Below are positions 8,627 to 37,433 of a DNA stretch of 64,000 bases, piece by piece (the first letter of the stretch is position 1; each line of letters starts with the position of its first letter). A model generated the notes under the pieces. It did not search any database. It saw only the letters and a program-made list of their open reading frames with translations, and was not told the DNA's origin. Source of the stretch: Denitrovibrio sp. (GTDB lineage Bacteria > Chrysiogenota > Deferribacteres > Deferribacterales > Geovibrionaceae); NCBI GenBank assembly GCA_002869145.1, contig PKTM01000012.1:182507-246506 (forward strand), read 5' to 3'. Position numbers and translations under genes: made by a program.

Positions 8627-9748
8627 ATGCCCTTAGACTCTAAAGACTCTAAAAATGAAATCCAGAAGAAACGAGGCATTTTTCATAATATACCAAAAAA
8701 CTGGAAACATGTCAGAGGGAAAATATATCTATTTCTCACTGTTTCCGTACTGGTACTGCTTGTAGTTTTTGCATATTTTTTCAACAGCATATTCATTAAC
8801 ATATATCCCGGAGAGGCAGGAGTGCTCTGGAAACGCTTTTCAGGCGGAACAGAGATGGACTATGTTTACAACGAAGGACTCCAGATAATCTTTCCATGGG
8901 ACAAAATGTATAAATATGACATCCGTGTTCAGCAGTATTCATATGATTTTGAAGCACTTTCAAAAGACGGACTTATAATAAAATTTGACTTGTCTGTAAG
9001 GTTTTTTCCTCAAAGATTAAACCTGCCTAAACTTCACAAAGAGATAGGCCCCGATTATATAGAAAAAGTAGTTAAGCCTGAGGTACAGGCTCACCTTCGT
9101 AAAGTTGTAGCTAACTATACTCCTGAAGAAATATACACTTCTGAAGGTTATCTGCTGCAAATCATAATTCAGGGTTCAATGGGCGCTTTTTCAGACAGAT
9201 ATCTTAATCTGGAAAACCTGCTGGTCAAAAAGATGACTCTACCTGCATCAATACGTGATGCTATAGAACGCAAACTGACTCAGGAACAAAAAGTTAAAGA
9301 ATATGACTACAGGCTGATGAGAGAGGCTAAGGAAGCACAAAGGAAATCTATTGAAGCAGAAGGTATCAAGAGATTTCAGGAGATTGTTAAATCTGGAAAA
9401 TTCTTTGACAAATACATTCAGTACAAAGGGATTGACGCCACTTTAGAACTATCGAAGTCTAATAATTCAAAGGTTGTTGTTGTAGGCAGTAACGGTAATC
9501 TGCCGCTGATTATGAATCTTGATTCTGCTGGGAAAGCGCCGGATATGCCGGCAGAAGCTGCGAAAATAGCTCCGCAAGAAACAACAAGAGACAATAAAGA
9601 GACTTCATCACCTGAACAAGGGAGTTCTGTAGAAGATATAGTTGGCGAAACAGAAAGTGCAAGCGACTTTTTATCCAGGATAAAAGGATATTTCAACCCT
9701 CCCGAAAAAATGAATAAAGAACCTATCAATAAGACTCCAGGTAACTAA
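8627..9748 (+). CDS. SPFH/prohibitin-family membrane protein
   Basis: The 373-residue protein has one transmembrane helix near residues 31-55 followed by an SPFH (band 7) domain to about residue 200 (IYPGEAGVLWKRF, YDIRVQQYSYDFEALSKDG, PEVQAHLRKVVANYTPEEI). A charged coiled-coil stretch and a low-complexity acidic tail follow. Members form membrane-bound oligomers that organise or protect other membrane proteins. It is the first gene of the plus-strand NRPS operon, overlapping the next gene by one base (TAATG). A role in organising the biosynthetic or export complex is inference; SPFH proteins are not usual NRPS partners. Confidence 0.85.
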   Translation: MPLDSKDSKNEIQKKRGIFHNIPKNWKHVRGKIYLFLTVSVLVLLVVFAYFFNSIFINIYPGEAGVLWKRFSGGTEMDYVYNEGLQIIFPWDKMYKYDIRVQQYSYDFEALSKDGLIIKFDLSVRFFPQRLNLPKLHKEIGPDYIEKVVKPEVQAHLRKVVANYTPEEIYTSEGYLLQIIIQGSMGAFSDRYLNLENLLVKKMTLPASIRDAIERKLTQEQKVKEYDYRLMREAKEAQRKSIEAEGIKRFQEIVKSGKFFDKYIQYKGIDATLELSKSNNSKVVVVGSNGNLPLIMNLDSAGKAPDMPAEAAKIAPQETTRDNKETSSPEQGSSVEDIVGETESASDFLSRIKGYFNPPEKMNKEPINKTPGN

Positions 9749-10959
9749 TGCTTATGAACAGCTTAACCAGATTAGCCTATATATTTTTAGCGTTATTCAT
9801 CATAACAGGCTGCGACAGAACAGACCTGAGAAAAGCTGAAGAGAAACAGTGGGACTCAGGAATCACATTCCACAATCCCAGCTTTAAGCCTGCTGAATCT
9901 TTAAATATTATTACATGGAATGAGTACATTCCTGATGAGGTTTTCGACAAATTTACAGAAGCTTACGGGACAAAAATAGATGTAACATACATCCACAGCA
10001 ACGAAGAGATGTACAGGCTTCTTAAAAAAAATCCTGAAAAATATGATCTGATAATGCCTAGCGACTATATGCTTGTAAAACTGAAAGATGAATCTATGCT
10101 GCAAAAAATAAATCTTGATAATATACCAAATGCAGTCTATCTGGATGAGAGCATCCGTAGAATGAAGCAGGATTTTGGGCTTAAATACAGCGTACCTCTA
10201 TTTTATAGCAGTATAGGAATTGGTTTTAATATAAAATACATACCCGGCTTTCCCAGATCGTGGGCCTTCATTTCAAATCTGGCAAAAAATGATTATTTAA
10301 ATTATCGAATAAGCCTGAGAAAAGACATGCGGGTCGCACTAGGTGTGGCGCTGATGTCTATGGGGTTTTCTCCAAACACTGTCAACCCTGCTGAAATTGA
10401 AGCCGCTAAGAACACACTAATAGATTCAATAGAAAACACAGGGCTTCAGCTTATTGACAACGCAATAACTAAAAAAATTGTAAACAAAGAAGTTCTTCTG
10501 GGAGTTATATGGAACGGTACAGCTTCAGAAGCTTTGAAACAGAATACAAACATCCGCTTTATATACCCCGAAGGGGATGTTATTACAACATATGAAAGCG
10601 GTGTTATTCCAGTACATAGCAAAAACTTGCAAACCGGAGAGCTTCTGCTTAACTTCCTGCTTAACGACCGTGTAATCGGGCACATATCAAATTACAATTT
10701 TTTCTCAAACTCTAACCCCAACTCGGCTCAATACATTGATATTCAGATAAAAAACGGCCCCGGCTATATTATACCTGAGGAGGAGTTTAGAGTTTATATT
10801 GAAGATGTGGGTGAAAATATTAAGCTTTATAACGCTGCATGGGAAGAAATTCTTGCTGCAAAGCCAAATGAAAACCTGGTCTCACTCCCGCTTCCGAAGC
10901 ATGGTTTATTTCAGGGGACTAATGTCTCTTCAAAAACTGCAAAACAGCTGAAGGAATAA
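9748..10959 (+). CDS. PotD-like periplasmic binding lipoprotein
   Basis: The 403-residue protein carries a lipoprotein signal (IITGC, lipidated Cys22). The mature part is homologous to spermidine/putrescine-binding proteins (LNIITWNEYIPDEVFDKF at about 52-69, YDLIMPSDYMLVK at about 104-116). No permease or ATPase of a polyamine importer is nearby. It lies between the SPFH gene (1-nt overlap) and the peptide exporter (1-nt gap), so it is co-transcribed with the NRPS genes. It could bind the product, a precursor or a polyamine, or take part in export; none of this is shown by the sequence. Confidence 0.82.
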   Translation: MLMNSLTRLAYIFLALFIITGCDRTDLRKAEEKQWDSGITFHNPSFKPAESLNIITWNEYIPDEVFDKFTEAYGTKIDVTYIHSNEEMYRLLKKNPEKYDLIMPSDYMLVKLKDESMLQKINLDNIPNAVYLDESIRRMKQDFGLKYSVPLFYSSIGIGFNIKYIPGFPRSWAFISNLAKNDYLNYRISLRKDMRVALGVALMSMGFSPNTVNPAEIEAAKNTLIDSIENTGLQLIDNAITKKIVNKEVLLGVIWNGTASEALKQNTNIRFIYPEGDVITTYESGVIPVHSKNLQTGELLLNFLLNDRVIGHISNYNFFSNSNPNSAQYIDIQIKNGPGYIIPEEEFRVYIEDVGENIKLYNAAWEEILAAKPNENLVSLPLPKHGLFQGTNVSSKTAKQLKE

Positions 10960-10960
10960 G

Positions 10961-12604
10961 ATGAAAAATTATATAAATTTTATCAGGGAAGAATCAGGAG
11001 CTATCAAGAAGTCTATGATTTTAATGACTTCGATTGCAGGCATAGCAAACGGACTTGCGATATCGACTGCTATACATACAGCTGAAAAGATTAAACCAGG
11101 CGAACTGCATTTCAGAGAATTTTTAATGTTTTGCTCGCTTATGCTTCTGTTTTGGTATTGTAAACGATTTTCTATGAACGAAAGCACAAAGATGGTTGAA
11201 AAGATTATCTCTTCTTTGAGAATGCGCATACTCGGAAAACTTAAAACAACTAACCTTGTAAATTTTGAATCCATTGATAAGGGAGTATTTTACTCCTCAC
11301 TTTCCGAAGACGCCTCCACAATATCGGCGTCAACAAACCTTGCAGTAAACGCCATGTCGTCCGCTGTAATGCTTATTTTTATCATCTGCTATATCGCTAT
11401 TTTGTCAATAAAAGGACTTATAATAAGTCTTGGAATAATAGCCCTTATGGTGCTGATGTATCTAAGAAATGAAAAAAAGATAGCTGAACTGTTCAAAAAA
11501 TCAACAGTTGCCGAAAACACTTTTATGGACAATCTAGGCGGTCTTTTGCTTGGGTTCAAAGACCTTAAACTCAACAGGCGTAAATACAAAGAATTTAATA
11601 AATGCGAACTCGAAGATGTTATCACGGAATCAGCAGATCACAGGGTAGATGCCGGACTGAGAATGAACATAACAATCCTTTTGGCTCAGACATTTCTGCT
11701 TTTGGCCATAGGGGGCATGCTCTTTATCCTGCCACAGTTTGACAGTGACAATGTTTACATAATACCTAAACTGATAGCACTTTTAATATTTGCTTCTGCT
11801 CCTATAAGCGATTTTGCTGTTGCTATTCCTGCCATGGCAAGAGCGGAAGCAGCTATAAACAACATCAGGTATCTGGAAGAACTAATAGACGAAGGACAAA
11901 GCAGAAGTGAAAAAATAGCTGATGAGCAGGCTATAAGAGACCTTAAGTGGGACACAATTTCTCTTAATGATGTAAGTTTTCAGTTTCCTCATAAATTTAA
12001 TGGGCGCCCGTTTAAAATTGGACCTGTTAATCTTGAATTTAAAAAAGGCGAAATCACTTTTATTGTTGGCGGAAATGGTTCAGGCAAATCGACCTTTCTA
12101 AAGGTTCTTACAAGCCTTTACTCGCCTGAAAGCGGCACAATATGCATTGATGATACTGAAATAGATGCATTCAATAAAGCTTCTTACCGAAACCTGTTTT
12201 CCACAATATTTTCTGACTACACACTTTTCAGAAGACTCTTAGGTATAGATATGCCGGAGGATTCTTTACTGAACGAGCTGTTGAAAAAGATGGAGCTGGC
12301 AGAAAAAACAACTATCGAAGCCGGCGCTATTACCAACAGAGACCTTTCATCTGGTCAGAAAAAGAGGCTGGCTCTTATTGTCTCAATTTTAGAAGACAAG
12401 CCTGTTATGGTTTTTGACGAATGTGCAGCGGATCAGGATCCTGTTTTTAGAAAGTTCTTTTATGACAACCTGCTCCCAGAGCTTAAAGCAAAAGGCAAAA
12501 CTATTATCGCAGTGACCCACGATGATAAATATTTCTATGCAGCAGACAGCATATTTAAGATGGAATACGGTAAATTTATCCCATTCAACGAAGATCTGAG
12601 CTAA
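10961..12604 (+). CDS. Cyclic-peptide-type ABC exporter (PvdE/SyrD/YojI family)
   Basis: The 547-residue half-transporter joins six predicted transmembrane helices to an ATPase domain. The ATPase has Walker A GGNGSGKST (near 370), the family-specific segment YRNLFSTIFSDYTLFRRLLG, signature LSSGQKKR, Walker B VMVFDE (near 483) and the switch histidine in VTHDD. This family exports nonribosomal peptides and siderophore precursors to the periplasm. Its place directly upstream of the NRPS genes makes it the likely exporter of the product. An AAGGAAT Shine-Dalgarno lies in the end of the preceding gene. Confidence 0.92.
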   Translation: MKNYINFIREESGAIKKSMILMTSIAGIANGLAISTAIHTAEKIKPGELHFREFLMFCSLMLLFWYCKRFSMNESTKMVEKIISSLRMRILGKLKTTNLVNFESIDKGVFYSSLSEDASTISASTNLAVNAMSSAVMLIFIICYIAILSIKGLIISLGIIALMVLMYLRNEKKIAELFKKSTVAENTFMDNLGGLLLGFKDLKLNRRKYKEFNKCELEDVITESADHRVDAGLRMNITILLAQTFLLLAIGGMLFILPQFDSDNVYIIPKLIALLIFASAPISDFAVAIPAMARAEAAINNIRYLEELIDEGQSRSEKIADEQAIRDLKWDTISLNDVSFQFPHKFNGRPFKIGPVNLEFKKGEITFIVGGNGSGKSTFLKVLTSLYSPESGTICIDDTEIDAFNKASYRNLFSTIFSDYTLFRRLLGIDMPEDSLLNELLKKMELAEKTTIEAGAITNRDLSSGQKKRLALIVSILEDKPVMVFDECAADQDPVFRKFFYDNLLPELKAKGKTIIAVTHDDKYFYAADSIFKMEYGKFIPFNEDLS

Positions 12605-12620
12605 TCACATAAAAACTGCC

Positions 12621-12636
12621 CGGAGGTTTTTTTTTG
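12621..12636 (+). promoter_or_regulatory. Ribosome-binding site deciding a TTG start
   Basis: GGAGG (12622-12626), a run of T and then TTG at 12634 give normal spacing. The first ATG in frame is 33 nt further on and would cut off the conserved N-terminal condensation-domain segment (SFIQKGLMF). Confidence 0.65.
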
Positions 12637-14601
12637 ATACCTTTTTCTTTTATACAAAAAGGACTTATGTTTGATGTTCTGAACATTGGCAACAATGTCC
12701 CCATATATAACAACGGCGGAATGGTCGACATGAGGGGCTTTGTTGATACTGACCTCCTCGAAAAAGCTGTCCGCCTGTCCATAAAAAGATGCAACATTAT
12801 AAGTGCTTGCATCATAGATAAAGATTGTGAATATTTTTTCGAATATGGCCGTTTTGAAACTCCAGCTATAGACTTTGTTGATTTCTCTGAGGAACTGAAC
12901 CCAGAAAAGGAAGCACACTCTTACTGTAGTAAATCAGTTGCTGAGTCTTTCGGTAATCTGATAAACATGCCTTTGTACCGATTCTCTATACTCAAACTAT
13001 CTGAAAATCACTACGCTCTTCATATGAAGTACCATCAGATAATTAATGACGGATGGGGGATTGTAAGGCATCTTACAGACATTGCAGAGTGCTACACAGC
13101 TTTGCTGAATGGTGACGAAGACAAACTTCCGCCAATGAATGACTATGAAATCTTTCAGTCAGCCCAAGCAGAATACATTAATTCTGATAAGTTTAAAAAA
13201 GACCTCCAGTTTATGACATCCTATTATGAAGACACTTCAGAAAAGCTTTTTCCTTTAGCAAAGCTAGGCTCCAGAGAAAGCTTCAGAAGCATTGAATCAG
13301 ACTATGTTCTAACTCTCCCATTTTTAAACAGTTTAAAAAATACCGCCTCAGCTTCCGGAGTATCCCTCACAAATATTCTTTACATTGCTACATATCTGGC
13401 AGTCTTTAAATTTTTCGGAGTTAAAAACCAGACATATTCATACATCAACCTGAACCGCAGAGGGCATGTCCAGAAAAATACTGTGGGCTCATTTGTAAAT
13501 GTGCTTGCGATGAAAGCTGGATTTGGAACAGACTGTACAATGAAAGAACTAGGGGTGAGATTCGCCAGAGAATCAATGAGCCTGATGCGCCACACTGCTT
13601 GCCCTTCAGTTTTTGTTAGCTCAGAGCTGACAAAAAACGGACAAAAGGGTCAGCATGTAGGCGAAATTTCCGTTAATCACATAACACCGAAACTTCCTCA
13701 GAAAATAGGGGGTGTTGATCTTAAAATAATATATACCCCAAGCGGTTTTAGCGGATACCCTCTGGATATTATTGTTCAGGAAACGACAGAAAACAAAGAT
13801 GTGCTCCTGCGTACAGTAAAAAAACGCAACATCATGTCCGAAAACGACAGCCTGCTTTTCGACAGATACCTGTGGAACCTGCTTAACCTTTTTACGGTTG
13901 AACCCAATATGGCATGCAGTGAAGCCCTTGATAAGTGTGAAAACGACAACGTTCCTTCACCTTTTAAAAATCCTTATAATCAGCCAGATTTCTCAGGATT
14001 CGAAGAGGAAGAGCCAGAAAATGGTATTTCAAGCCTTTCCGAAGGACCTAAAAACAGAACAGAAATGACAGAGACCGAAGCCAAGCTGAAGTCAATATGG
14101 GAAAAGCTGACTAATTTAAAAATAGATGACCCATACACAAACTTCTTTGCCGTTGGCGGGCACTCTCTTCTTGTAATACAGATGGTAAAAGAGATAAAAA
14201 ACGCCACTGGAGTCATACTGAAAGCTAAAGATATTTTTGAGATGCAGACCCTCGAAAAAATCTCAAAAATAGTCGATATCAGCATCAATGCCAGACGAAA
14301 CATCGCCATTGAACATATAATGAATGATTTCGCTGCAGCCTTGGATATTGACATAGAAAAAATAGCAAAAGACACTGCTTTCTCTGAGTACTGCGACAAC
14401 ACCACACAACTTGATAATCTTTACAAAATAATCAACGATAAGTATCATTTAAGTATCAATGAGCAAGCCACTTCTGATATACTTACACCAGAAAAAATAT
14501 ACCGCATGGTTCGTTTTGAAACGGAAAATGAAGACGAAGATTCCACCGAAGCTCTCTCCTTAGAGGAGATAGAACAACTAAATAAGCTATTGGAAAATTA
14601 A
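12634..14601 (+). CDS. Starter NRPS protein: degenerate condensation domain, carrier domain, second carrier-like domain
   Basis: The 655-residue protein has a condensation-type domain (about 1-440) in which the HHxxxDG motif reads HQIINDG, so the catalytic second histidine is glutamine. A carrier domain follows at about 478-553 with FFAVGGHSL (attachment Ser511). A second carrier-like fold at about 555-625 has NTTQ where the DSL serine would be (FSEYCDNTTQLDNLYKIIN). There is no adenylation domain, so Ser511 would have to be charged in trans. The acidic tail ends in SLEEIEQLNKLLEN, a possible docking helix for the next protein. It overlaps that gene by one base. Confidence 0.85.
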   Translation: MIPFSFIQKGLMFDVLNIGNNVPIYNNGGMVDMRGFVDTDLLEKAVRLSIKRCNIISACIIDKDCEYFFEYGRFETPAIDFVDFSEELNPEKEAHSYCSKSVAESFGNLINMPLYRFSILKLSENHYALHMKYHQIINDGWGIVRHLTDIAECYTALLNGDEDKLPPMNDYEIFQSAQAEYINSDKFKKDLQFMTSYYEDTSEKLFPLAKLGSRESFRSIESDYVLTLPFLNSLKNTASASGVSLTNILYIATYLAVFKFFGVKNQTYSYINLNRRGHVQKNTVGSFVNVLAMKAGFGTDCTMKELGVRFARESMSLMRHTACPSVFVSSELTKNGQKGQHVGEISVNHITPKLPQKIGGVDLKIIYTPSGFSGYPLDIIVQETTENKDVLLRTVKKRNIMSENDSLLFDRYLWNLLNLFTVEPNMACSEALDKCENDNVPSPFKNPYNQPDFSGFEEEEPENGISSLSEGPKNRTEMTETEAKLKSIWEKLTNLKIDDPYTNFFAVGGHSLLVIQMVKEIKNATGVILKAKDIFEMQTLEKISKIVDISINARRNIAIEHIMNDFAAALDIDIEKIAKDTAFSEYCDNTTQLDNLYKIINDKYHLSINEQATSDILTPEKIYRMVRFETENEDEDSTEALSLEEIEQLNKLLEN

Positions 14602-17600
14602 TGAAAAACATAAACCCATACGACTCTAGTGTTTCACATTTCTCTCTTACTATGAACCAGAAACGCCTCTGGTTTTTACAGGCACTCGCCCCTGAATCTT
14701 TAGACTTTGTCCTCACCCACGCTTTTTCTATCCCCATAGACAAATCTGTCACCACTGAAAAGATAGAAAGCACTCTGAATATGCTTTTCAAAAATAATCA
14801 ATCTCTAAGAGGTGCTTTGACACTTACGGAAAACAATACGGCAAGGCAGTTCTTTCACAGTGCTGAACTAGATTTCCTGCCGGAACCCTTCAATAAGCCT
14901 GTGGAAAACTTCATAAAAGAGGTCTCAGAAAAGCCTTTTGATATAAAATCCGGAAAATGTGCCGAGTGCTATTACACTGTTACACAACAAAACACTTTAA
15001 CTGTAATAATAAGGGTTCATGCAATATTTGTGAACAAACTTACCCTGCCTTTACTGGCTGCGGATTTTGAAAATATATTAAACGGAGCCGGCGTTTCGAA
15101 AGACAGCTCCCTAAGCGATTTCACAGAGTACCAGTATAAATTTCTAAGCTCCGAATCTGCCACAGAGAAGACCCTCTACTGGAAGAGTAAATTTTCTAAA
15201 CAGCCACAAGAGCTTGATTTGCCCGCAGACAGAGGCAGACCTCAGATGAAAAACCATAGCGGCTCAGTTTTTGAGCACGCTTTTCCAGAATCTCTTACCA
15301 ATAAGATAAAAGAATATACTTCAAAAAATAATCTAAGCGTTTTCCAGTTTGTATTCAGCTCTGTTTCTGCTTTGTTTCACAGATACACAGGCAACACTGA
15401 GATCACCGCAGGAACAGAAATGCTGTTTTCTGAAGCTCCAAACGGTAAAGCCGGAGCTTTTCTGAATTATGTCCCTGTAAAGCTGAACTTTAAAACATCC
15501 ACAGACTTTGATGTTTTTTACAGACATTCAGCGGCAGAGATGATGAAATCCGCAGACAACGGCGACATCCCTTTTTCAGATATTATAGACAATTCTCACA
15601 GTGTAAAAAACACCTCCAGAAACCCGCTTTTCGACTTCGCTGTTTCAGAAAAAATATCTGCTGAGACTGAAAGAGTTAACCTGATCAAACAAGAGAAAAC
15701 CCATTCAGATTACGATCTGGAAATATCAGTTGAGTGTTCGGAAAGTGTCTTATTCGAAATTGTTTATGACAATGCTCTTTTTGACCGGAGCAGGATAGAA
15801 AAACTTATGCTTCATTTGGAAGTATTTATCTCCTCCGCGCTGAAAAATACAAAAATGACAATCTCTGAAGCAGAGATACTTACTGAAAACGAGAAAAAAC
15901 TTTTAATAAAATATAACAGCACAGACCACCCGTTCCCTGACACTGAGACCCTTGCCTCTGCTTTTGAAACAACGGCTAAAAAGAACTCTGACTGTGCTGC
16001 ACTTCTTTTTGACGGCAAAAGCACCACTTATTCTGAACTCGAAAAAATGAGCGGCAATATAGCTGCCGCACTGAAAAATAGAGATACAAAAAATTATATA
16101 GGGATAATGGCTGAAAGATCTATCGAGATGATAGCAGGGATACTGGGTATAATCCGCGCAGGGATGGCATATGTCCCGCTTAACCCTGACTATCCTGCAC
16201 AGCGTACCCAATGGATGCTTGAAGATACCGACTATCCGCAGGTTTTAACCTCAAAAAAATATGCTGACAAATTTTCAGACTCCAAATGCGAACTGCTCTT
16301 TTTTGAAGATATAAAAGACTCTGCCTATTCAAAATCAGAGATAACTCCTGACGATTCTGCATATATTATTTTCACTTCCGGCTCAACAGGCAGACCAAAA
16401 GGGGTGGAGATTCAGCACAAAGCCATTATGAACAGGCTATTTTGGATGCAGGACACTTTCACACTGGACAGCAGTGACGTTATCTTGCAGAAGACTCCAT
16501 ACAGCTTTGACGTTTCAGTGTGGGAGATATTCTGGTGGTCACACTGCGGAGCATCACTCGCGATACTCCCGCCCGGCGCAGAAAAAAACCCCGAGTCCAT
16601 AGTCGAGTTTATATCTGAAAACTGCTGCACAGTTCTCCACTTTGTCCCCTCCATGCTGAACCAGTTTCTTAATTATCTCGAAATGGAACCCGCACAAACA
16701 GCAAAGCTTAAGACACTGAAATATGTTTTTGCAAGCGGAGAGGCACTCACAGCAGAACTCTCGGCAAAATTCGACCGTATCATCGGCAAGCATATGCAAG
16801 CCGAACTGCACAACCTGTACGGACCGACAGAAGCAGCTGTTGATGTAACATGGCACCCCTGCACGCCTCACAATGAAAAACAGACAGAGATCCCTATCGG
16901 AAAACCTGTTTATAATACAAAAATCCATATCCTCGACCAAAACGGTAATGAGATGCCACCCGGTGTTGATGGAGAAATTCATCTCGGCGGGGTGCAGCTG
17001 GCAAAAGGATATATAAACAGAGAAAAACTGACCTCTGAAAAATTCGTTACAATAAGAGGCGAACGTCTTTATAAAACCGGAGACAAGGGCCGCATAGGTG
17101 ATGACGGGTCAATTATTTTCCTCGGAAGGCTGGATGGTCAGGTAAAAGTGCGAGGATTTCGCATAGAAACCGGCGAAGTGGAAAACGCACTGATGAAGGT
17201 CAAAGGTATCAAAGAGTGTGCTGTAGATGTTGTTACTCTCAGCTCAAAAGTCGCAGAACTTGCGGCTTGGGTTTCAGCAGATGATGGACTAAGCACAAAA
17301 GACATAAAGGGAGCACTCAGCAGAACATTGCAGGACTACATGATCCCTACCAAAATTTTCAGCGTGGACAATATCCCGCTGAACCCGAACGGCAAGGCAG
17401 ATAAGAAAGCACTACTGAAGCAGAACAGACTGCTGGATGTAACAGTTTCTTCATCTGACATCACAGAAACCGAACAAACAGTTTCAGACATATGGAAAAA
17501 ACTACTGGAAGTTCCGGAAGTCGGGCTTGACGTAAACTTTTTCGACTCCGGCGGCAACTCACTGCTGCTGCTAAGCCTTCATGAAGCACTGGAAGCCAGA

Positions 17601-25900: not shown

Positions 25901-28900
25901 TTCAATCATTGGGGATTCGTTAAGATATAAGCTGGTAGGCTCAGGCGATATCAAAAAAGAGCTGGGCAACAGCTACTCCGAAAACAGGTTCAAATTTGGT
26001 GAGATCATTTTCTCATACATGAATTATTCTCAATCAGAAGCATCATCAGGCGAAAATCCGTGGTTGGAAATGCTTGGAACAGGTGATAAAGCATCAGCAA
26101 AAGCGGAAATGAGCTTTTTTGGTCTCGAAACTGACAACAAACTGCACATTACCGTTGAATATTATGCAGACGCATACAGTAAAAACTATATAGATCGGAT
26201 ATGTTCACTCTATTCCAGTCTTATAGATGTGATACTCGATTCTGACCCTCAGACTTTAATTAAAGATATTTCAGAAATACCTGCTGAAGAAAACGAAAAA
26301 CTGCTTAATGAATTTAGCGGACAGTTTATGGGTTTTCCTCAGGATAAATCACTTGTAGCTCTTTTTCAGGAGACAGCACTGAAACATCCGGATAATATCG
26401 CCATAGAAGATGACGGTAAAAAACTAAGCTATCGCGAGCTTGACCGCATATCAAATTATTCAGCAAAGATTATCAAAAAGCTAGGCACAAAACATGGCGA
26501 ACCTGTGGCGGTATACGCAGACAGGAGCATAGATTCTGTCACAGCTATTTTGGGTATTATAAAAGCAGATTGCTGCTACTTGCCGATAGATGATTCTGCA
26601 CCAGCAGACAGAGTTAACTCCATTATTAAGTCAGCAGGGTGCTCTATTATTATATCCGAAGACAATTACAAAAATTCGGAGCTGACCAATATTCTGCTGA
26701 AAGATATTGTTAGCGGCGGCGAAGACGAAGCCCAAGTGACTGAATCTGATGGAAATTCTATGGCATATATTATGTTTACATCCGGTTCCACAGGCGAGCC
26801 AAAAGGCACAATGATAAAACACCTGTCAGTTACAAGGCTGGTACGAAATACAAACTATATAGAATTTGGCTCAGACGATAAGATACTAATGGGTGGCACT
26901 CTGGCATTTGATGCCTCTACACTGGAGATATGGGGCGCACTTCTTAACGGCGGGACACTGCATATAGCCAGAAAAGATCAGCTTCTAAGCAGAACAGGTC
27001 TGAGGGAGATAATTAACAGCCATGGTATAACTAAAATGTGGCTCACAGCGAGCCTCTTCAACGCAGAAGCGGACAAGGACCCTTCAATATTTGCAAACCT
27101 GAAAGTGCTTATGACTGGGGGAGAAAGGCTCAGCGTTAAACATGTTGAAAAAGTTATGAATGCATGCCCAGAGCTGACTCTAATGAACTGCTACGGCCCA
27201 ACAGAAAATACTACATTTACTACCACCCACGTCATTACACGTGACGATTTGAAGAGCAACATACCTATTGGAAGACCTATAGCAAACACAAGTGTTTACA
27301 TACTAGACAACAGACAAAGACCTGCTCCTGTAGGCGTATGGGGCGAGATAGCAACAGGCGGGTATGGTGTTGGAGAAGGCTATATAAATGACAAAGAGCT
27401 CACTAACAAAGTATTTATAGACAACCCTTTCAGTGAAGGTAAACTCTACCTTTCTGGTGACATCGGCAGGTTCAGAGAAGACGGTGTTATTGAGTTTTTC
27501 GGAAGAAAGGATGCTCAGATAAAAATCCGTGGAAACAGAGTGGAGCTTTCGGAGGTTGAAACAGCAGTGACAGCTTCCGGATATGCCAAGCAGGCGGCAG
27601 CCTTTATTGAAAACAGTGAGACTGATAAATTTCTTTCTGTATGTGTCACCGGCTTTGATGAAAATAACCTGAGCTCACTCAGAGCCTATCTCATGCGGAC
27701 AATCCCTACATATATGATCCCATCCAGATATTATCTGGTAGAAGAGATTCCGGTGAACAAAAACGGAAAAACAGAGAGAGCATCACTTCCGGAGTGTGCT
27801 GCAAATGGAAAATTAATAAAGCAAACAGTAGAAAACACTGACGATCTGGATGCTAAAGAGAAGATGGTCATAGAGTGTTTTCAGAAAATAATGGAGCTAG
27901 AAAACATAAGCTCTGAGGACAACTTTTTCAGCCTTGGCGGGCACAGTCTTCAAGCTGCTAAAATCATTGCTATGATTCAGGATAAATGCGGATATGAACT
28001 TTCTATCAGCAAATTTATGCTGAACCCGGTAGTTAAAAATATTGCAGCACTGATAGAAGACACTGTAAACACATACGAAATACCGAAAGCTGAAGCCGCA
28101 GAAGATTACCCTTTAAGTTATGCACAGAGAATACTTTACTCTGTCTGTCAGCTCGAAGGAGCAAGCGCAGCATATAATATCAACTCCATAGTAAAAGTAG
28201 ACTCATCACTGGATCTGGAAATATTTAAGAAAACAGCCCGAATACTCATTGAAAAACATGAAATACTAAGAACATATTTCATAGAAAAAGATGGGGATAT
28301 CAGACAAAAAGTTGCTGAGAATGTGCCGCTCCCATTAAAGATTGTATATCTGGATGAAGTGGGAGAGAAGAACATAAAAGACATAATAAGCAAGGAGCTA
28401 GACAGGTCTTTCGACCTTTCAGAACCGCCTCTTATAAGGTTTTGCATGTGGAAACACCTTGATGGTACATGGACTTTAACCTTTGTTATCCACCATATAG
28501 CTGCGGACGGGACCTCTTTTGAAATATTTCTCAGCGACATGACTGAAATTTATGAATCTCTACTCACAAAAGGGGAGTACATTTACGATGAAGAATCTAT
28601 TAATTATAAAGATTTTTCTATCTGGCAGAATAAGTTCGACTTCACAGAAGAACTAGAATCATGGCAGTATAAGCTCAGGGATGTACCAGAATCTGTGGAG
28701 CTTCCGCACGATTTTGATGTCCCTCTACGGAGAAAATTCACTGGAAAGACTATTCTGAGAGATTTTGATAAAGAGCTTTCAGATAAGCTTCATGAGATTT
28801 CATCCAGACTGAATATAACTTTTAACAGCATGATGATGGGTATATTTGCCCTGCTCATAAACAAGCTAAGCAATCAGGACGATTTCTGTATTGCACTGGG

Positions 28901-29396
28901 CAGTGCCTCCAGACATCACCCTGCTCTACAGAATATTCTTGGATTTTTTGTAAATCTGATGCCTATCCGCTTTAAATTTGACGAAGAGCTTGACGTTCAG
29001 GAATACTTCACCAAAACATATAGTGAGATCTTAGCCGCTCTGGAGCTTCAGCACTGTCCTTTTGACCTTGTTATTGACAAAGTGCTTACTTCCAGATCAA
29101 GCGGCAGGCAGCCTTTGACTAATATCGGTTTCGAATACGAAACATTTGATATGGACAATTCTGACAAATCCACCCTTCAGTTTATCGAGATGGATAAGGA
29201 TCTGGGAACTATCATTTTTCAGGATTCATCTAAATTTGACGCAACTCTTTATGTTGTTGAATCAAGTGTGGGACTCCACCTGAAACTGGAGTTCGACACG
29301 GAACTATTCTCTCAACAGAGTGCCGAAAGGTGGCTTGATTACTATAATGAATTTTGTGAAAATATTGCAGAAATGCTCTATGAGCAGGAGATATAA
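19953..29396 (+). CDS. NRPS-PKS hybrid synthetase, part after the in-frame TAA (A'-PCP-KS-DH?-KR-ACP-C-A-PCP-C)
   Basis: The frame resumes with NGYGPTE of adenylation domain 2, so no sensible initiation site exists; the first in-frame TTG/ATG lies inside the domain. Numbering the interrupted protein as one of 4931 residues, it contains carrier Ser2046 (ISGNS), ketosynthase (Cys2268 DTACSSS, His2401 EAHGTGT, His2441), no acyltransferase, a dehydratase-like double-hotdog (His2699, Asp2860; the usual proline of HxxxGxxxxP is alanine), ketoreductase (GGSGGVG; Ser3261/3262, Tyr3275), carrier Ser3410, condensation HHIIGDG (3593-), adenylation with code DALWMGCTFK (valine-like), carrier Ser4449 and condensation HHIAADG (4631-). 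Domain 2 reads DALTMGGVIK, which I cannot assign. Confidence 0.88.
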   Translation, partial: YPDLVIINGYGPTESTVICATHKIDNTKSYDTIPIGRPVKDARIYIVDSNRNILPRGAWGELCVAGNILSSGYLNREELNAKHFAPLISVDEERVYFTGDIAKWNRNDELEFKGRKDSQVKIRGVRIEIGEIEHSLLSNPSVKDCVVVKTELSDEVVELVAFVTASCNMTEQTLKKYLGTILPASNVPSRIIFLDSIPLNSSSKADRDKLTQIALKALQNQSISEHKDYSEIHEQIYSILQAVLPDTEFDMDSNFFDISGNSILVIDLFNRINAIYPDKIKIPDLFRYTTVNEISSFIKGEQEETVSAKTINNSGDIAVIGMAVRLSDYDDTESLWTDLLYACDKVGEIPPERKKQTLDIIDSDGAGVNFFESAYLNDISLFDPLRYGISPAEAVLMDSEQKLFMMLCMSALDDAGSGGETLRHKKVGVFAGSSPSSIYRDFIIRKYPERIEQAFSVTVPSSTATRLSYLMDWKGPAAMVDTACSSSLNAVHLACNALRNGECEYALAGGVKVSYVPVDEGLDFAIQSKKSRAYTFDDNADGTGMGEGGCAILLKPLSKAVEDGDSIHAVIKGSAVNQDGRSSGPAAPNPKAQTELILNAWANAVVTADTIGYIEAHGTGTKLGDPIEIDAITKAFNNQTSMKQFAAIGSVKGNFGHLDSAAGILGFVKAVLCVKNEKIPPQPFYTTPNKEIDFENSPVFVPESIIPFPKVFSKRRAGVSSFGLSGVNCHVIIEEAPKQMMTEDEGMQFFLLSAPDDELLRDYCGRLAISLVKNSCSLTDLAYTLAYGRPVLKKRIVIITKGKEILIKALTSVSAGVEFDEGAEIYFDAEGEHKIFGSLIIDFIKKAKLPASLTGKRIHIPYSKNKQISVWPKKTAVKKQSAVSSQLISAPVETPDGFSFSMNVSSAEFWPIHEHILSGSPVMAGMAVINILKSAAQQAGLAGSVEVTNLKWLSPLRPEDFLSPNCLLKLDTKNQSFAASLMYKAKSGAWNTVLMADISPLTKFSEKADVKRWQNSCSVKNDVTFLNDNPIINVSDKWLCLKEKRSDSNGILQYGELELTGASGDTWRDFNPAVIDCGVSMGLKEQYVPAFCKSVEIIKPLPEKIFCLTETKYNERNKTIYTDALFTDDKGDVSLRFKEIGFKKISLQNIPLFRKMWQEKPVNSEAQTVLPKLLIACGEQKYLKKFKPELEDAGAFVPETASIDKSLTDIINSSEGARLIYFHETDESLFKFISELKTVLKYVRKPLFFLSVTTGSFRVKNEIHNFENIKRSLFNGMMRAVGHESAFLKAASIDCDENTDFRTIIAEFNEFTPENIPMKTRAVRNGKRYVRSYEIAPEAEGPDLVTEGGSYLITGGSGGVGSAFAAYLSEKGAKHIGILSKNPKDLSACVHTKQTNMHYIKCDAGDKEQLKSAVKSFADTAGLINGVIHAAGVPGDGFLVNKDDATFESVLRPKVEATINLYEAVSDYSPEYIILCSSGTALTGAPGQTDYTSANTFHDFFAESLSDDKIHIISINWPMWLDTGMAKNLPEELSSKYGVTPKNGPEVAETALKTGASGIIPAADPRLLSWLTDENGNRQSNSEKEVSKEKKSSASIIKQITDTWCRELDYKKLDIDDDFYEIGGDSLSAMRIASKLTTELGKPVTVTDIFANPTIKELTLFLGGDLAENNPTSGVQKAPEQEYYLITSGQEDIFRYQTISPENTSFNLSYFASFNTTIEADRLIKSLKVLFDRHKIFKASFKEVSGEIRMYINEDRELPFEIFDLGSTDKRIETAENFIQPFNLEKDTLIRTALLKCDNKKDVLLFDLHHIIGDGNTLEILMDELKNIYFGNELPDKYTDTIDFIHWMKSIESSKVWEQEKKFWLAKFPDGITDIYFPEDRIRPSKLTFKGALTSIIIEADKLKRIRDYAKKAKTTVYTLMTTALALVLTRQAGREDMVIYSASSLRDKQEFVNVPGLLINTVPLCIETKPDSSISENIKNVASIIGDSLRYKLVGSGDIKKELGNSYSENRFKFGEIIFSYMNYSQSEASSGENPWLEMLGTGDKASAKAEMSFFGLETDNKLHITVEYYADAYSKNYIDRICSLYSSLIDVILDSDPQTLIKDISEIPAEENEKLLNEFSGQFMGFPQDKSLVALFQETALKHPDNIAIEDDGKKLSYRELDRISNYSAKIIKKLGTKHGEPVAVYADRSIDSVTAILGIIKADCCYLPIDDSAPADRVNSIIKSAGCSIIISEDNYKNSELTNILLKDIVSGGEDEAQVTESDGNSMAYIMFTSGSTGEPKGTMIKHLSVTRLVRNTNYIEFGSDDKILMGGTLAFDASTLEIWGALLNGGTLHIARKDQLLSRTGLREIINSHGITKMWLTASLFNAEADKDPSIFANLKVLMTGGERLSVKHVEKVMNACPELTLMNCYGPTENTTFTTTHVITRDDLKSNIPIGRPIANTSVYILDNRQRPAPVGVWGEIATGGYGVGEGYINDKELTNKVFIDNPFSEGKLYLSGDIGRFREDGVIEFFGRKDAQIKIRGNRVELSEVETAVTASGYAKQAAAFIENSETDKFLSVCVTGFDENNLSSLRAYLMRTIPTYMIPSRYYLVEEIPVNKNGKTERASLPECAANGKLIKQTVENTDDLDAKEKMVIECFQKIMELENISSEDNFFSLGGHSLQAAKIIAMIQDKCGYELSISKFMLNPVVKNIAALIEDTVNTYEIPKAEAAEDYPLSYAQRILYSVCQLEGASAAYNINSIVKVDSSLDLEIFKKTARILIEKHEILRTYFIEKDGDIRQKVAENVPLPLKIVYLDEVGEKNIKDIISKELDRSFDLSEPPLIRFCMWKHLDGTWTLTFVIHHIAADGTSFEIFLSDMTEIYESLLTKGEYIYDEESINYKDFSIWQNKFDFTEELESWQYKLRDVPESVELPHDFDVPLRRKFTGKTILRDFDKELSDKLHEISSRLNITFNSMMMGIFALLINKLSNQDDFCIALGSASRHHPALQNILGFFVNLMPIRFKFDEELDVQEYFTKTYSEILAALELQHCPFDLVIDKVLTSRSSGRQPLTNIGFEYETFDMDNSDKSTLQFIEMDKDLGTIIFQDSSKFDATLYVVESSVGLHLKLEFDTELFSQQSAERWLDYYNEFCENIAEMLYEQEI

Positions 29397-32300
29397 TGAA
29401 GATCGGAGATCTCAAGCTTAGCCTGAACAAACAAGATAAAAACAATATTTCTACATTTATAAAAGACAATACAATAATATCCGCTTTCGAAAAAACCGCT
29501 GAAAAACAACCTGATAAAAACGCTGTATACGACGGCACAGACTGGATAACTTACGGAGCACTGAAAGCTTCTGCTGATTCGATATCTTCGTTCATACAGT
29601 CTCTTAGCATAGAAAAAGGCTCATTCATTGCTATCATGGCAGAGCGAAAAAATGTCGCAGTGGCAGTTATGCTTGGGATTATGAAAGCGGGATGTGCATA
29701 TGTACCTATAGATCCTGAGCTCCCTGAGAAAAGAATCCTTCAAATGATAAATGAATGCAGCTCCCCGCTGCTGTTTTTCACCAGCAAATACATGAGAGGC
29801 GCTAATATCCTTCAATGGAACTCTGCGTCAATGAATAATATCTGCTGTGTGGATACAGATGATTTTTACTCTGTTATCGAATCCACTGGCGAGATTATGG
29901 ACGAAGCGCTTTGGGATGCTGTGGCTGAAAATGCAGATACAGATGTTCAGGCCGGAGGGTGGAAAGACCCGTACAGCGGAGAATGGATTAGCGATGATAT
30001 TATGGACAGCTTCTCTGTTAATGTTTTCGAAAAACTTCAAAAATATACAGACAAAAACTCCGTGATAATGGAGATAGGTTCTGCAAGCGGGCTTTCGCTT
30101 AAAAGACTGGCTCCGCTTTGCAGTAAATATTTCGCAACAGACATCTCTTCCTCTATGCTTGATTTTCTGAAAAGCAATCTCGTAAGCAGGTTTGCCAACG
30201 TGGAGACATTCCACACACCTGCTCACAACATAGACACTTTAAAGCCAAATACATTTGATGTCATAATCATAAACAGCGTTGCGCAGAGTTTCCCCGGGCA
30301 TAACTATATGCGGGATGTAATGAAAAAGTGCGACAGCATGCTTAATGACTGCGGCGTTATTTTCTTGGGCAACATTTACGATGCATCTAAAAAGGGCGAG
30401 TTCGAAAAATCATTTATAAAATATAAGATGACGCACCCTGAGTCTAATGTTAAAGCACATTTTGATGCCGAACTATTTTTTCATCAAGACTTCTTCGCTG
30501 ACTGGGCGGCAAATCATTCATACACAACTCAGTTTTCTGATACAAATGTTGAGGCCGATTTTTTCAGCTACGGATACGATGTTGTTCTGGTAAAAAACGG
30601 AAAAGAACAGCAAGCAGTCCGGGCTAAAAGACAATTTAGCAGAAGCGACCTGACAGAGTCCTCATGTGCAGACCTTTCTGAAAACGGCGATAACGCTTAC
30701 GGGATATTTACCAGCGGAACAACAGGCACACCAAAAGGAGTACAGATAGCTCACAGGTCTGTGCTTAATCTGGCAGAAACACTTTACGACATGATATATA
30801 AAGACGGCGCTGTCAGAACGGGAGTTTTCCCATCTTTCAGTTTTGACCCGTCAGTACAGCAGATATTCCCAGCTCTTATATACGGCTCAGAGGTTGTAAT
30901 AATCCCTGAGACATTCAGGAAAGACCCTGTAGAGCTATACTCTTTTGTAAAAGACAGCGGAATAGAGTTTATGGACTTAACCCCAGCCATGGCATCCGTG
31001 TTCACAGACTACGCCATCGGGAACGGTCTGAAGTGCCCTTTGACGCATCTGATTGTTGGCGGTGAACAGTTTTCTAAAAATCTTGCCAAAGAGATTTTCA
31101 GATGGAACTCATCGCTGCACCTCATAAATGCTTACGGACCAACCGAGTGCTGTGTAAGTGCAACCTACTATGAACTTGATGCCGACAAGCTGGACAAGCT
31201 TCCTTCCATACATATCGGTTCGCCGGTTAAAAATACAGAAATATTTATCTTTGACGATGCAGGAAACCCTATTCCTGAAGGATTGCAGGGCGAAATATGT
31301 GTTAGCGGAGAAGGTGTCAGCAGAGGCTACATAAACGACAGCAAGCTCACTGATGAAAAATTCACACCCCACCCTTTTAATCCCGATAAAAAAGTGTACC
31401 GCACTGGTGATATAGGGCGTGAATTCAGTCCGAATCTATTTATGTTCAACGGCCGTAAAGATACTCAGGTAAAGGTGCGGGGCTACCGCATTGAGCTTGC
31501 AGAGATAGAAAATACAGCACTGAAACTTGCTGAACTCAACAACTGTGCAGTAGTATGCAGAGACTTTTCCGAAAGCGGAAATCCCGCCATCGTTCTATAT
31601 TTCACATCAGATACCCCACAGGAGCCGGCACATATAAAAGCATCTCTGATAGAAACTCTCCCTGAATACATGATACCTGAATACGTTATACAGATAGAAT
31701 CTATCCCCCTGAACTCAAGCGGGAAAATCGATTATAAAGCACTTCCAAATCCTCAGATAGAGTCTGAGAAAATCTCAGACGGAGAGAAACCGTCGACAAA
31801 GAACCAGATTAAAATTGCTGATTTTATAAAACAGCTTACCGGACTGCCGAACTGGACAATAGACGATAACTTTTTCGACTCAGGCGGCAACAGCATTCTG
31901 GCTGTCAGACTTATCAGCATGATACACACTTACTCTGGGAAAAGAATACCCCTTACATACCTTATGAAACATCCTACCATAAGGCTGCTTGCGGCATATC
32001 TGGAAAACAGAGTTTCTACAGAAAAATGGACACCTCTGATACCAGTGAGTACCTGCGAACAGTCCACAGATGACCTTTTCTGTTTTCATCCGGTAGGTGG
32101 GAGTAACTTCTGCTATCACCATCTGTCTGTTGCATTAAAAAATATGTATAACATCACAATGACACAATCGCCAGGCATGTCCGGAAACAGCAAACCTATG
32201 TCAGACTGCAAAGAAATAGGAAGACTTTTTTGTGATGAGATTTTACAGAACTTTCCAGATTCGCCAAAAATACTTATAGGCTGGAGTTTCGGTGCGCTTA

Positions 32301-32836
32301 TTGCCCTTGAAACTGCCAGAGAGATGATAGAGAGAGGGCTCAGACCAAAATGTGTAGTTATTATTGATATGACCTCCGGAAACAATAGAATTTCTAAAGA
32401 GATGCTGTCCAGTGAGACGGGTATTAATAAGCTATTCATAGACTTATTCGGTTTAAACGACCTGAACCCTGAAGAAACAACAAGAGAGCAGATCAGAGAG
32501 CGTGTTCTTAAGCTTGGCATTGAGACAGGTTTTTTTCCTGAAGGTATGGAAGATGAAATATGCAACCGTCTGCTTGATGTTGCTATGGCAAATGCTCATG
32601 CAAGCGTAACATACACACCGCAGAAATATGACGGTGAAGTGCTTTTAATAAGAGCAACAGAGATTACCAGATCTTCTTTTATAGATTCCGGAGAGGATGC
32701 ATTTCTCGGATGGAAAAACTATCTGAGTAACATAACACTGAAATGGGTTGATGCTACTCACGAAACAATACTTTCGCCGGATGTCATCCCTGAAACAGCA
32801 AGGCATATAAAAGATTTTATAAAGAGGCTGAAATAA
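29396..32836 (+). CDS. Terminal NRPS protein: adenylation domain interrupted by methyltransferase, carrier, thioesterase
   Basis: The 1146-residue protein starts directly with an adenylation domain (A2 AGCAYVPIDP near 98-107). A SAM-dependent methyltransferase of the NRPS type (GGWKDPYSGEW at 187, motif I EIGSASG at 226-232) occupies about 187-400, and the adenylation domain then resumes at A3 (FTSGTTGTPKG, 438-448). A carrier domain (GGNS, Ser833) and a type I thioesterase (GWSFG, Ser964; His1122) end the line. The condensation domain for this module is the last domain of the preceding protein. The hand-read code is DPQDIGAVSK, unassigned. The thioesterase should release or cyclise the product. 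Confidence 0.9.
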   Translation: MKIGDLKLSLNKQDKNNISTFIKDNTIISAFEKTAEKQPDKNAVYDGTDWITYGALKASADSISSFIQSLSIEKGSFIAIMAERKNVAVAVMLGIMKAGCAYVPIDPELPEKRILQMINECSSPLLFFTSKYMRGANILQWNSASMNNICCVDTDDFYSVIESTGEIMDEALWDAVAENADTDVQAGGWKDPYSGEWISDDIMDSFSVNVFEKLQKYTDKNSVIMEIGSASGLSLKRLAPLCSKYFATDISSSMLDFLKSNLVSRFANVETFHTPAHNIDTLKPNTFDVIIINSVAQSFPGHNYMRDVMKKCDSMLNDCGVIFLGNIYDASKKGEFEKSFIKYKMTHPESNVKAHFDAELFFHQDFFADWAANHSYTTQFSDTNVEADFFSYGYDVVLVKNGKEQQAVRAKRQFSRSDLTESSCADLSENGDNAYGIFTSGTTGTPKGVQIAHRSVLNLAETLYDMIYKDGAVRTGVFPSFSFDPSVQQIFPALIYGSEVVIIPETFRKDPVELYSFVKDSGIEFMDLTPAMASVFTDYAIGNGLKCPLTHLIVGGEQFSKNLAKEIFRWNSSLHLINAYGPTECCVSATYYELDADKLDKLPSIHIGSPVKNTEIFIFDDAGNPIPEGLQGEICVSGEGVSRGYINDSKLTDEKFTPHPFNPDKKVYRTGDIGREFSPNLFMFNGRKDTQVKVRGYRIELAEIENTALKLAELNNCAVVCRDFSESGNPAIVLYFTSDTPQEPAHIKASLIETLPEYMIPEYVIQIESIPLNSSGKIDYKALPNPQIESEKISDGEKPSTKNQIKIADFIKQLTGLPNWTIDDNFFDSGGNSILAVRLISMIHTYSGKRIPLTYLMKHPTIRLLAAYLENRVSTEKWTPLIPVSTCEQSTDDLFCFHPVGGSNFCYHHLSVALKNMYNITMTQSPGMSGNSKPMSDCKEIGRLFCDEILQNFPDSPKILIGWSFGALIALETAREMIERGLRPKCVVIIDMTSGNNRISKEMLSSETGINKLFIDLFGLNDLNPEETTREQIRERVLKLGIETGFFPEGMEDEICNRLLDVAMANAHASVTYTPQKYDGEVLLIRATEITRSSFIDSGEDAFLGWKNYLSNITLKWVDATHETILSPDVIPETARHIKDFIKRLK

Positions 32837-33726
32837 TGAGCAGCAAAACAGCAGCCCTCTTCCCGGGGCAGGGCAGCCAGAAGCAGAACATGGCAGACAG
32901 TCTGGTTAAAAACCATAAAATAGCAATGGATGTTTTCTGTGAGTGCTCAGACATTCTGGGAACAGACGTTCTGGCTCTTACACGACTAAGTGAAAAAGAG
33001 ATAGCTCAGCCTGCCGTAACACATAAAATAATACCTGTTTCATCACTTGCCGCCTGGGCAGTTTTCAAGGAAACATCCAAAGCTGATTTTGCAGCTGGAC
33101 ACAGCCTTGGCGAGCTGACAGCATTAGCGGCTGCCGGAGCCTGCTCAGTGAAAGATATGCTTAGCCTCTGCTCAGTTCGTGGTGAGCTTATGCAAAATAC
33201 CACGTCAACTGTCAGCGGCGGAATGACCGCTGTCCTTAATTCCTCTCTGAGTGACATTTCAGAAGTCTGCGAAGCGACAAATGGAGCTGATAACGACAAA
33301 ACATGGATAGCCAACATAAACTCTTATAATCAGATTGTGATAGCTGGTGCAAAAGATAAGCTTGATGAAGCTGAGAAATTACTTACCGAAAAAGGTGCAA
33401 GCTGTATACGGCTGAAAACTGCCTGTGCATTTCATACACCCCACATGGGTACGGCAGTTAAAAAATTGATGGAGAAGGCTGCAAAAATAAAATGGCAGCA
33501 GCCAGAAATAACTATTGTTTCTGCACGCACTGGAAAACCTTATGAAAACCACAGCACAATCCCGTATGAACTATCCTTGCAGCTTGTGCAGCCGGTGTTA
33601 TGGCTGAACACTGTACAGTTTCTGAGAAACGCCCATGTGAAAACAGTATATGAAATGACACCAGCAGGAACTCTCACCGGTCTTATTAAATCGATTGAAA
33701 AAAATATAAGTTGTCACAATATTTGA
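32836..33726 (+). CDS. Discrete malonyl-type acyltransferase (trans-AT)
   Basis: The 296-residue protein is FabD-like: it opens with FPGQGSQ, carries the nucleophile motif GHSLGE (Ser90) and a CAFHTPHM segment of the malonyl-selective AFH type. It starts one base inside the preceding stop codon overlap and is the last gene of the NRPS operon. The polyketide module in that operon has no acyltransferase of its own, so this enzyme most likely loads malonate onto its carrier Ser3410 in trans. A housekeeping FabD role is possible but less likely given the position. Confidence 0.9.
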   Translation: MSSKTAALFPGQGSQKQNMADSLVKNHKIAMDVFCECSDILGTDVLALTRLSEKEIAQPAVTHKIIPVSSLAAWAVFKETSKADFAAGHSLGELTALAAAGACSVKDMLSLCSVRGELMQNTTSTVSGGMTAVLNSSLSDISEVCEATNGADNDKTWIANINSYNQIVIAGAKDKLDEAEKLLTEKGASCIRLKTACAFHTPHMGTAVKKLMEKAAKIKWQQPEITIVSARTGKPYENHSTIPYELSLQLVQPVLWLNTVQFLRNAHVKTVYEMTPAGTLTGLIKSIEKNISCHNI

Positions 33727-33751: not shown

Positions 33752-33781
33752 TTGACATAAAGTTTCATTTAGAGGTATACT
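33752..33781 (+). promoter_or_regulatory. Strong sigma-70 promoter
   Basis: TTGACA (33752-33757), an 18-bp spacer and TATACT (33776-33781) match the consensus almost perfectly. It separates transcription of the downstream DUF697 gene from the NRPS operon and gives a leader of roughly 65-70 nt. Confidence 0.75.
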
Positions 33782-34374: not shown

Positions 34375-34381
34375 GTGCGTC

Positions 34382-34582: not shown

Positions 34583-34584
34583 AT

Positions 34585-34615
34585 AAAAAGCCCGTAGCAA
34601 TACGGGCTTTTTTTT
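34585..34615. terminator. Bidirectional intrinsic terminator
   Basis: AGCCCGTA and TACGGGCT form a perfect 8-bp stem around GCAA, flanked by an A run on one side and a T run on the other, so it can serve both convergent operons. Confidence 0.85.
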
Positions 34616-35998: not shown

Positions 35999-36115
35999 TT
36001 CGCACCGCCTACACTTAGCTAAAGCTAATTATACCGCTCATATGATGATGCCGTCAATTGCAACCTCTGTAGTTTCACTGAGCAGTGGCCTTAAATATGA
36101 CAACGGCTTTGCAGA

Positions 36116-37426: not shown

Positions 37427-37433
37427 CTACCAC

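What the first reader, a model, noticed from the sequence alone, without database searches (positions are those of the whole stretch)
8627..33726. Large hybrid trans-AT polyketide/nonribosomal peptide operon
One operon encodes exporter, three synthetase proteins, a KS-DH-KR-ACP module without its own acyltransferase and a discrete acyltransferase at the end. Editing thioesterase and Sfp-type transferase lie opposite. Predicted line: starter carrier, serine, an unassigned residue, one reduced malonate unit, a valine-like residue, and a last residue methylated in the line, released by thioesterase. Such clusters are not typical of anaerobic sulfur/selenium respirers.
Basis: partly seen in the sequence, partly recalled or inferred. 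Interest (0 to 1): 0.72.

Follow-up and report, generated by a model that had tools for sequence, protein, structure and literature searches.

The report
Thalassospiramide-like peptide operon with internal stop
This anaerobic bacterium carries a gene cluster built, part for part, like the marine lipopeptide (protease-inhibitor) assembly lines called thalassospiramides, which the papers read report only from Alphaproteobacteria, but its largest gene is cut in two by a stop codon, so in the sequence as given the product probably cannot be completed.

Summary
Two corrections matter. (1) The central synthetase is not intact: one in-frame TAA (19950-19952) lies in the module-3 adenylation domain. 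The same frame is otherwise open from 14601 to 29396, and no usable start follows the stop before the rest of that domain is lost. (2) It is not an isolated trans-AT hybrid. Domain by domain (C-T / C-A-T-C-A-T-KS-DH-KR-T-C-A-T-C / A-MT-A-T-TE) it is colinear with alphaproteobacterial thalassospiramide-type lines. It shares their methyltransferase inserted between motifs a2 and a3, the same C|A gene split with the MKIGD start, and a KS clade with 100/99 support. Identity is only about 31%. It differs in substrate order (Ser-X instead of Val-Ser before the ketide), in a discrete AT of its own, and in an SPFH/binding-protein/cyclic-peptide-exporter set. A genome of the same family has a barnesin-type cluster with similar accessories, so such clusters are not foreign to these anaerobes. 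An SPFH + DUF697 + exporter set recurs beside such clusters; I found no paper describing it. Verdict: new variant of a known kind, probably silent as sequenced.

The parts
7085..7831 (-). type II (editing) thioesterase
   Evidence: PF00975, E 1.6e-28
7824..8486 (-). Sfp/EntD-type 4'-phosphopantetheinyl transferase
   Evidence: PF17837 + PF01648
8627..9748 (+). SPFH/Band 7 (prohibitin-like) membrane protein; first gene of the operon
   Evidence: PF01145 E 5e-27; relatives beside NRPS and exporter genes
9748..10959 (+). PotD-like periplasmic binding protein without its own importer genes
   Evidence: PF13416, PotD model E 9e-41
10961..12604 (+). cyclic-peptide ABC exporter (SyrD/PvdE type)
   Evidence: TIGR01194, 318 bits, cut-off 286
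12634..14601 (+). module 1: C (12640-13809, motif YHxxxDG) - T (14092-14265), no A domain; C-terminal degenerate carrier-like tail. TTG start after GGAGG
14601..19949 (+). modules 2-3, first part: C (14643-15833; HHxxxDG partly lost, VHAIFVNK) - A Ser (15975-17414; DVWHFSLVDK) - T (17487-17660) - C (17817-19028) - first part of A3 (from 19164)
19950..19952 (+). in-frame TAA stop inside the module-3 A domain, between the GGE segment and motif A5
   Evidence: no in-frame ATG/GTG/TTG until 20280
19953..29396 (+). same frame continued: rest of A3 (to 20582; code DALVMGGVIK) - T (20664-20837) - KS (20901-22166) - DH (22635-23369) - KR (23766-24533) - T (24756-24929) - C (25008-26228) - A Val-like (26376-27788; DALWMGCTFK) - T (27873-28046) - C (28110-29360)
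29396..32836 (+). module 6: A (29498-29890) interrupted between a2 and a3 by an SAM methyltransferase (29999-30601), A continued (to 31744; code DPQDIGAVSK), T (31820-31993), TE (32075-32818); starts MKIGDL
32836..33726 (+). discrete malonyl-CoA acyltransferase, distinct from the housekeeping FabD (30% identity)
33856..34374 (+). DUF697 membrane protein, own promoter-like -35/-10 (33752-33781)
   Evidence: PF05128
34382..34582 (+). 66-aa membrane protein, relatives beside DUF697/SPFH in Azospirillum and Telmatospirillum; terminator-like hairpin follows
34614..35273 (-). second DUF697 protein
   Evidence: PF05128; only two DUF697 places in the genome, both here

Best explanation
The operon is a deep-branching relative of the thalassospiramide assembly lines. 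Intended working, by homology: the PPTase arms the carriers; a fatty-acyl/amino-acyl starter passes through C-T (module 1, loaded in trans) to Ser (module 2) and an amino acid X (module 3); KS-DH-KR-T adds one malonate supplied by the discrete AT and turns X into a vinylogous (alpha,beta-unsaturated) gamma-amino acid; Val (module 5) and an N-methylated, probably Tyr-like residue (module 6) follow; the TE releases the chain, probably as a macrocycle; the ABC exporter with SPFH, DUF697 and a binding protein exports it or protects the cell. Such vinylogous peptides act as Michael acceptors on proteases. In the sequence as given, one TAA ends translation inside the module-3 A domain, so everything from there to the last C domain is not made and the full product probably is not either. 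Shown: gene order, domains, motifs, stop, colinearity. Inferred: substrates, product, cyclisation, silence.
For: Same domain order as Tistrella pTM1 TMO_RS20815/TMO_RS31725 and, in the core, unnamed alphaproteobacterial genomes G113, G379, G095, G224. Terminal protein aligns end to end (31%) with the methyltransferase at the same a2-a3 site and the same MKIGD start after the C|A split; PMC11355689 lists this insertion for thalassospiramide TtcC/TtmB as N-methylating. Module-6 code DPQDIGAVSK matches the relatives' DxxDxGAVxK. KS groups with Ttm and Telmatospirillum KSs, 100/99. KS, KR, carrier, TE and MT motifs kept; DH keeps His and Asp. Stop: same frame before and after, same codon-position GC on both sides, no start until 20280, no other break in the operon's genes.
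Against: Only about 31% identity; Ser is one module early and the unit before KS is unassigned, so the vinylogous Ser and 12-membered lactone of thalassospiramides are not predicted. The locus tags of TtmA/B were matched through described architecture, not read in a paper. The C domain of module 2 has lost D and G of HHxxxDG. No product is known, and the stop could be a sequence error.
Confidence: 0.78

Rival explanations
1. The same assembly line, intact and working: the TAA is a base-call or assembly error, or a rare variant in the sequenced culture, and the middle protein is a single 4931-aa synthetase.
For: One isolated stop in a 14.8-kb frame; everything else open with motifs kept and the same codon-position GC on both sides; the stop lies in a variable loop.
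Against: Genome is 99.4% complete with 29 contigs and 0.35% contamination. A suspected second stop in another gene of this assembly proved to lie upstream of its start, so no sign of poor base quality was found. No reads or sister strain were available.
Confidence: 0.35
2. The stop is read through (suppressor tRNA or recoding), or translation restarts after it, so a working split or full protein is made.
For: The downstream frame shows no decay.
Against: UAA is not a known Sec or Pyl codon and the next base is U, usually a strong terminator (own knowledge); no in-frame ATG/GTG/TTG before 20280, after motif A5 and the pocket residues are lost. tRNAs of the genome were not surveyed.
Confidence: 0.04
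3. A generic trans-AT PKS-NRPS hybrid of no particular family.
For: KS-DH-KR-T without AT, discrete AT at the end.
Against: Colinearity, a2-a3 methyltransferase, MKIGD start and KS clade tie it to one family.
Confidence: 0.07
4. A long-dead remnant under no selection.
For: In-frame stop; degenerate C domain in module 2.
Against: No other stop or frameshift in the genes of a 25-kb operon and catalytic motifs kept.
Confidence: 0.05

Closest known systems
Thalassospiramide assembly lines (ttc of Thalassospira, ttm of Tistrella)
   Same: Module order, A-less first C-T (as in Ttm), KS-DH-KR-T, Val-type module 5, terminal A-MT(a2-a3)-A-T-TE with MKIGD start, KS clade.
   Different: About 31% identity; Ser-X instead of Val-Ser before the ketide; intact A in module 5 where Ttm has a remnant; one ACP instead of two; separate module-1 protein; discrete AT in the operon; in-frame stop; host in another phylum.
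Barnesin cluster brn of Sulfurospirillum barnesii and gvb of Geovibrio (G003 here is of this type)
   Same: Vinylogous amino-acid module KS-DH-KR-T without AT; cyclic-peptide exporter and PPTase; in G003 two DUF697, an SPFH and a binding-protein gene; anaerobic host, same family.
   Different: brn is a two-residue line ending in KS-DH-KR-T-TE with no methylating module; AT comes from primary metabolism; the G003 binding protein is LivJ-like, not PotD-like.
Iturin-type hybrids (BamA with BamD)
   Same: Related KS and a discrete malonyl transacylase in the operon.
   Different: Different lipopeptide line and module order, no terminal a2-a3 methyltransferase (own knowledge; only the KS and AT were compared here).
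Didemnin-like cluster region of Tistrella pTM3
   Same: Same SPFH + DUF697 + cyclic-peptide ABC genes next to NRPS-PKS genes.
   Different: Different, much longer assembly line; cluster identity inferred from the literature, not tested.

Membership tests
Thalassospiramide-type (ttc/ttm) assembly line | Terminal protein A-MT-A-T-TE with methyltransferase between a2 and a3, split from its C domain | tested here: met
   PMC11355689 Table 2
Thalassospiramide-type (ttc/ttm) assembly line | C-A-T, C-A-T, KS-DH-KR-T, C-(A)-T, C in this order upstream | tested here: met
Thalassospiramide-type (ttc/ttm) assembly line | KS in the same clade | tested here: met
   100/99 with Ttm and Telmatospirillum KSs, 24-row tree
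Thalassospiramide-type (ttc/ttm) assembly line | Ser directly before KS-DH-KR (vinylogous Ser, 12-membered lactone) | tested here: not met
   Window Ser code in module 2; module 3 is DALVMGGVIK
Thalassospiramide-type (ttc/ttm) assembly line | Malonate AT taken from primary metabolism | tested here: not met
   Discrete AT in the operon besides FabD elsewhere; PMC5577590
Thalassospiramide-type (ttc/ttm) assembly line | Product with alpha,beta-unsaturated ring and N-methyl-Tyr | not testable with these tools
   No metabolite data
Barnesin-type (brn/gvb) cluster | Two-residue NRPS then KS-DH-KR-T-TE | tested here: not met
Barnesin-type (brn/gvb) cluster | Cyclic-peptide transporter genes and own PPTase | tested here: met
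Canonical trans-AT PKS | AT-less KS module served by a discrete AT | tested here: met
   Anatomy only: no AT in the module, discrete AT in the operon
Canonical trans-AT PKS | KS nested in the trans-AT KS radiation | tested here: inconclusive
   Does not join the two sampled trans-AT KSs, but sampling is small

The most novel reading that the evidence does not exclude
The SPFH + DUF697 + small membrane protein + cyclic-peptide exporter set is an undescribed export or self-protection unit that marks gene clusters for cyclic or protease-inhibiting hybrid peptides across at least two phyla, and the window's line makes a new thalassospiramide-like scaffold with a non-serine vinylogous unit in an anaerobe.
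Probability: 0.35. Interest if true: 0.65.

Novelty: new variant of a known kind. Interest (0 to 1): 0.52.

Why it matters
It extends a family of covalent protease inhibitors with drug interest (thalassospiramides inhibit calpain 1 at nanomolar level, PMC4350077) from Alphaproteobacteria to an anaerobic lineage, with a different predicted warhead residue. It ties that family to barnesin through neighbouring genes, and it points to a conserved membrane-protein set beside such clusters that can be tested directly. The in-frame stop also warns that cluster presence does not mean product: anyone mining this genome should resequence 19950-19952 first.

Tried and rejected
A first genome-contig scan with the 3038-aa protein found no relative because the patterns were poorly suited. 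I first took the Tistrella pTM1 protein for a didemnin gene; rejected because it is on pTM1, its architecture is that described for TtmB, and the didemnin-like region is on pTM3. I considered side-chain methylation for the a2-a3 methyltransferase (as in TioN and MarQ); rejected in favour of N-methylation because TtcC/TtmB are listed as N-methylating at this site (PMC11355689). I considered a clean insertion into a congener's locus: left synteny with G002 ends between 6793 and 7085, but the next congener gene lies on another contig here, so no empty site could be shown. A suspected second nonsense codon in the genome was an artefact. The Rce1/CAAX gene at 43646 as a DidK-like maturase: no relatives beside the other clusters. 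No Rfam family in 5-45 kb, no tRNA in the window.

Full report
OBSERVATION. The operon described is present. On the + strand, joined by stop/start overlaps (TAATG-type at 9748, 14601, 29396 and 32836; 1-29 bases between the others), lie an SPFH/Band 7 gene, a PotD-like binding-protein gene, a cyclic-peptide ABC exporter, three synthetase reading frames and a discrete acyltransferase; a type II thioesterase and a PPTase lie opposite. All five condensation domains of the 2.88-Mb genome are here. The genome has a housekeeping FabD elsewhere; the operon's AT is a second, divergent copy (30% identity).

THE STOP. The middle synthetase is interrupted. A TAA at 19950-19952 lies in the same frame as the 14601 gene and the 20280 ORF; reading 14601-29396 in one frame gives 4931 codons with this single interruption. 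It falls in the module-3 adenylation domain, in a variable loop before motif A5. No in-frame ATG, GTG or TTG occurs before 20280, so a restart would lack A5 and the pocket residues around it. Codon-position GC is alike on both sides, and no other gene of the operon is broken. This fits a recent nonsense mutation, or an error in the sequence; the tools cannot separate these. Homologous lines in other genomes are open here.

ARCHITECTURE AND RELATIVES. With domain profiles built here, the window reads C-T / C-A-T-C-A-T-KS-DH-KR-T-C-A-T-C / A-MT-A-T-TE. Tistrella mobilis pTM1 (TMO_RS20815 and TMO_RS31725, adjacent across the origin of the circular record) reads C-T-C-A-T-C-A-T-KS-DH-KR-T-T-C-(A remnant)-T-C / A-MT-A-T-TE. 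The last protein aligns end to end at 30-32% with all seven relatives, with the methyltransferase at the same place; six of the eight begin MKIGD and two MRIAD. A review lists exactly this a2-a3 insertion, N-methylating, for thalassospiramide TtcC and TtmB (PMC11355689), and another describes a truncated first A domain in the Tistrella pathway and AT supply from primary metabolism (PMC5577590). I therefore take pTM1 as ttm; the locus tags themselves were not read in a paper. The KS tree joins the window KS to the Tistrella and Telmatospirillum KSs at 100/99, then the barnesin-type KS of G003 (92/88), then iturin-type.

SUBSTRATES. Pocket codes: module 2 DVWHFSLVDK (the Ser code), module 3 DALVMGGVIK (unassigned), module 5 DALWMGCTFK (Val-like), module 6 DPQDIGAVSK, which matches the relatives' DxxDxGAVxK, the site of N-methyl-Tyr in thalassospiramides (PMC3705361). 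Reading codes as amino acids rests on general knowledge of the Stachelhaus codes; no predictor was run. The relatives read Val-Ser before the ketide, so the window's vinylogous unit is not Ser, and the 12-membered lactone cannot be assumed. KS, KR, T, MT and TE motifs are kept; the DH keeps its His and Asp; the module-2 C domain has lost D and G of HHxxxDG.

WORKING. By homology the KS-DH-KR-T module should make an alpha,beta-unsaturated gamma-amino acid. In thalassospiramides this group binds calpain's catalytic cysteine by Michael addition (PMC4350077); barnesin carries a vinylogous Arg and inhibits cysteine proteases (PMC13096860). A protease-inhibiting lipopeptide is thus the likely design. 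In the sequence as given it is probably not completed.

ANAEROBES. PMC13096860 reports brn in Sulfurospirillum barnesii, a homolog gvb in Geovibrio, and no others found by BLAST. G003, in the window's own family, holds DUF697-ABC-SPFH-LivJ-type binding protein-NRPS (codes DASTIAAVCK, DVKDLGCVEK)-PKS (KS-DH-KR-T-TE)-DUF697-PPTase, which fits that description. Two congeners lack the cluster; left synteny with G002 ends between 6793 and 7085.

THE MEMBRANE SET. Relatives of the SPFH gene lie beside cyclic-peptide exporters and NRPS genes in Azospirillum, Tistrella pTM3, Caballeronia, Telmatospirillum, G113, G003 and, apart from the PKS contig, G049; DUF697 accompanies it in most. A 66-aa membrane protein recurs in three. 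In the window's phylum this SPFH subfamily (over 280 bits) occurs in G000, G003 and G049 only, the same three genomes with a strong assembly-line KS match among 51. DUF697 occurs in the window's genome only at this locus. No paper listed held both 'DUF697' and 'nonribosomal peptide synthetase'. Its role, export platform or self-protection, is inference. It is absent near the G379, G095 and G224 lines in the stretches read, so it is not essential to the family.

VERDICT. A new, deeply divergent variant of a known kind, in an unexpected but not unprecedented host, probably silent in this sequence.

Noticed in passing
L021, L023, L034, L046, L049, L083-L085, window 8627-9748 and 33856-35273: SPFH + DUF697 + cyclic-peptide exporter recur beside NRPS or NRPS-PKS clusters in two or more phyla; a small membrane protein accompanies them in three.
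   Followed up: partly
window 43646-44461: Rce1-like CAAX protease gene near an AraC-type regulator, 10 kb from the cluster; didemnin maturation uses a CAAX-type protease (DidK, PMC10811503), but no relatives sit beside the other clusters.
   Followed up: partly
window 12634-14601, residues 545-655: Carrier-like tail after the T domain in the module-1 protein without the serine attachment motif.
   Followed up: no
L046, L047, L054, L030 (Telmatospirillum MAG contig, 80.8 kb): One contig carries two successive thalassospiramide-like lines plus an upstream A-T-KS module, two exporters, SPFH and DUF697.
   Followed up: partly
window 35243-42465: ParA-like gene next to the second DUF697 gene, then a two-component/CheR set with a 1201-aa hybrid kinase not found at E 1e-120 in five relatives.
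   Followed up: no
G049:C7:52116-93113: A genome of the same phylum has three type I KS modules in another KS clade, with a DUF697 gene between two PKS genes.
   Followed up: no
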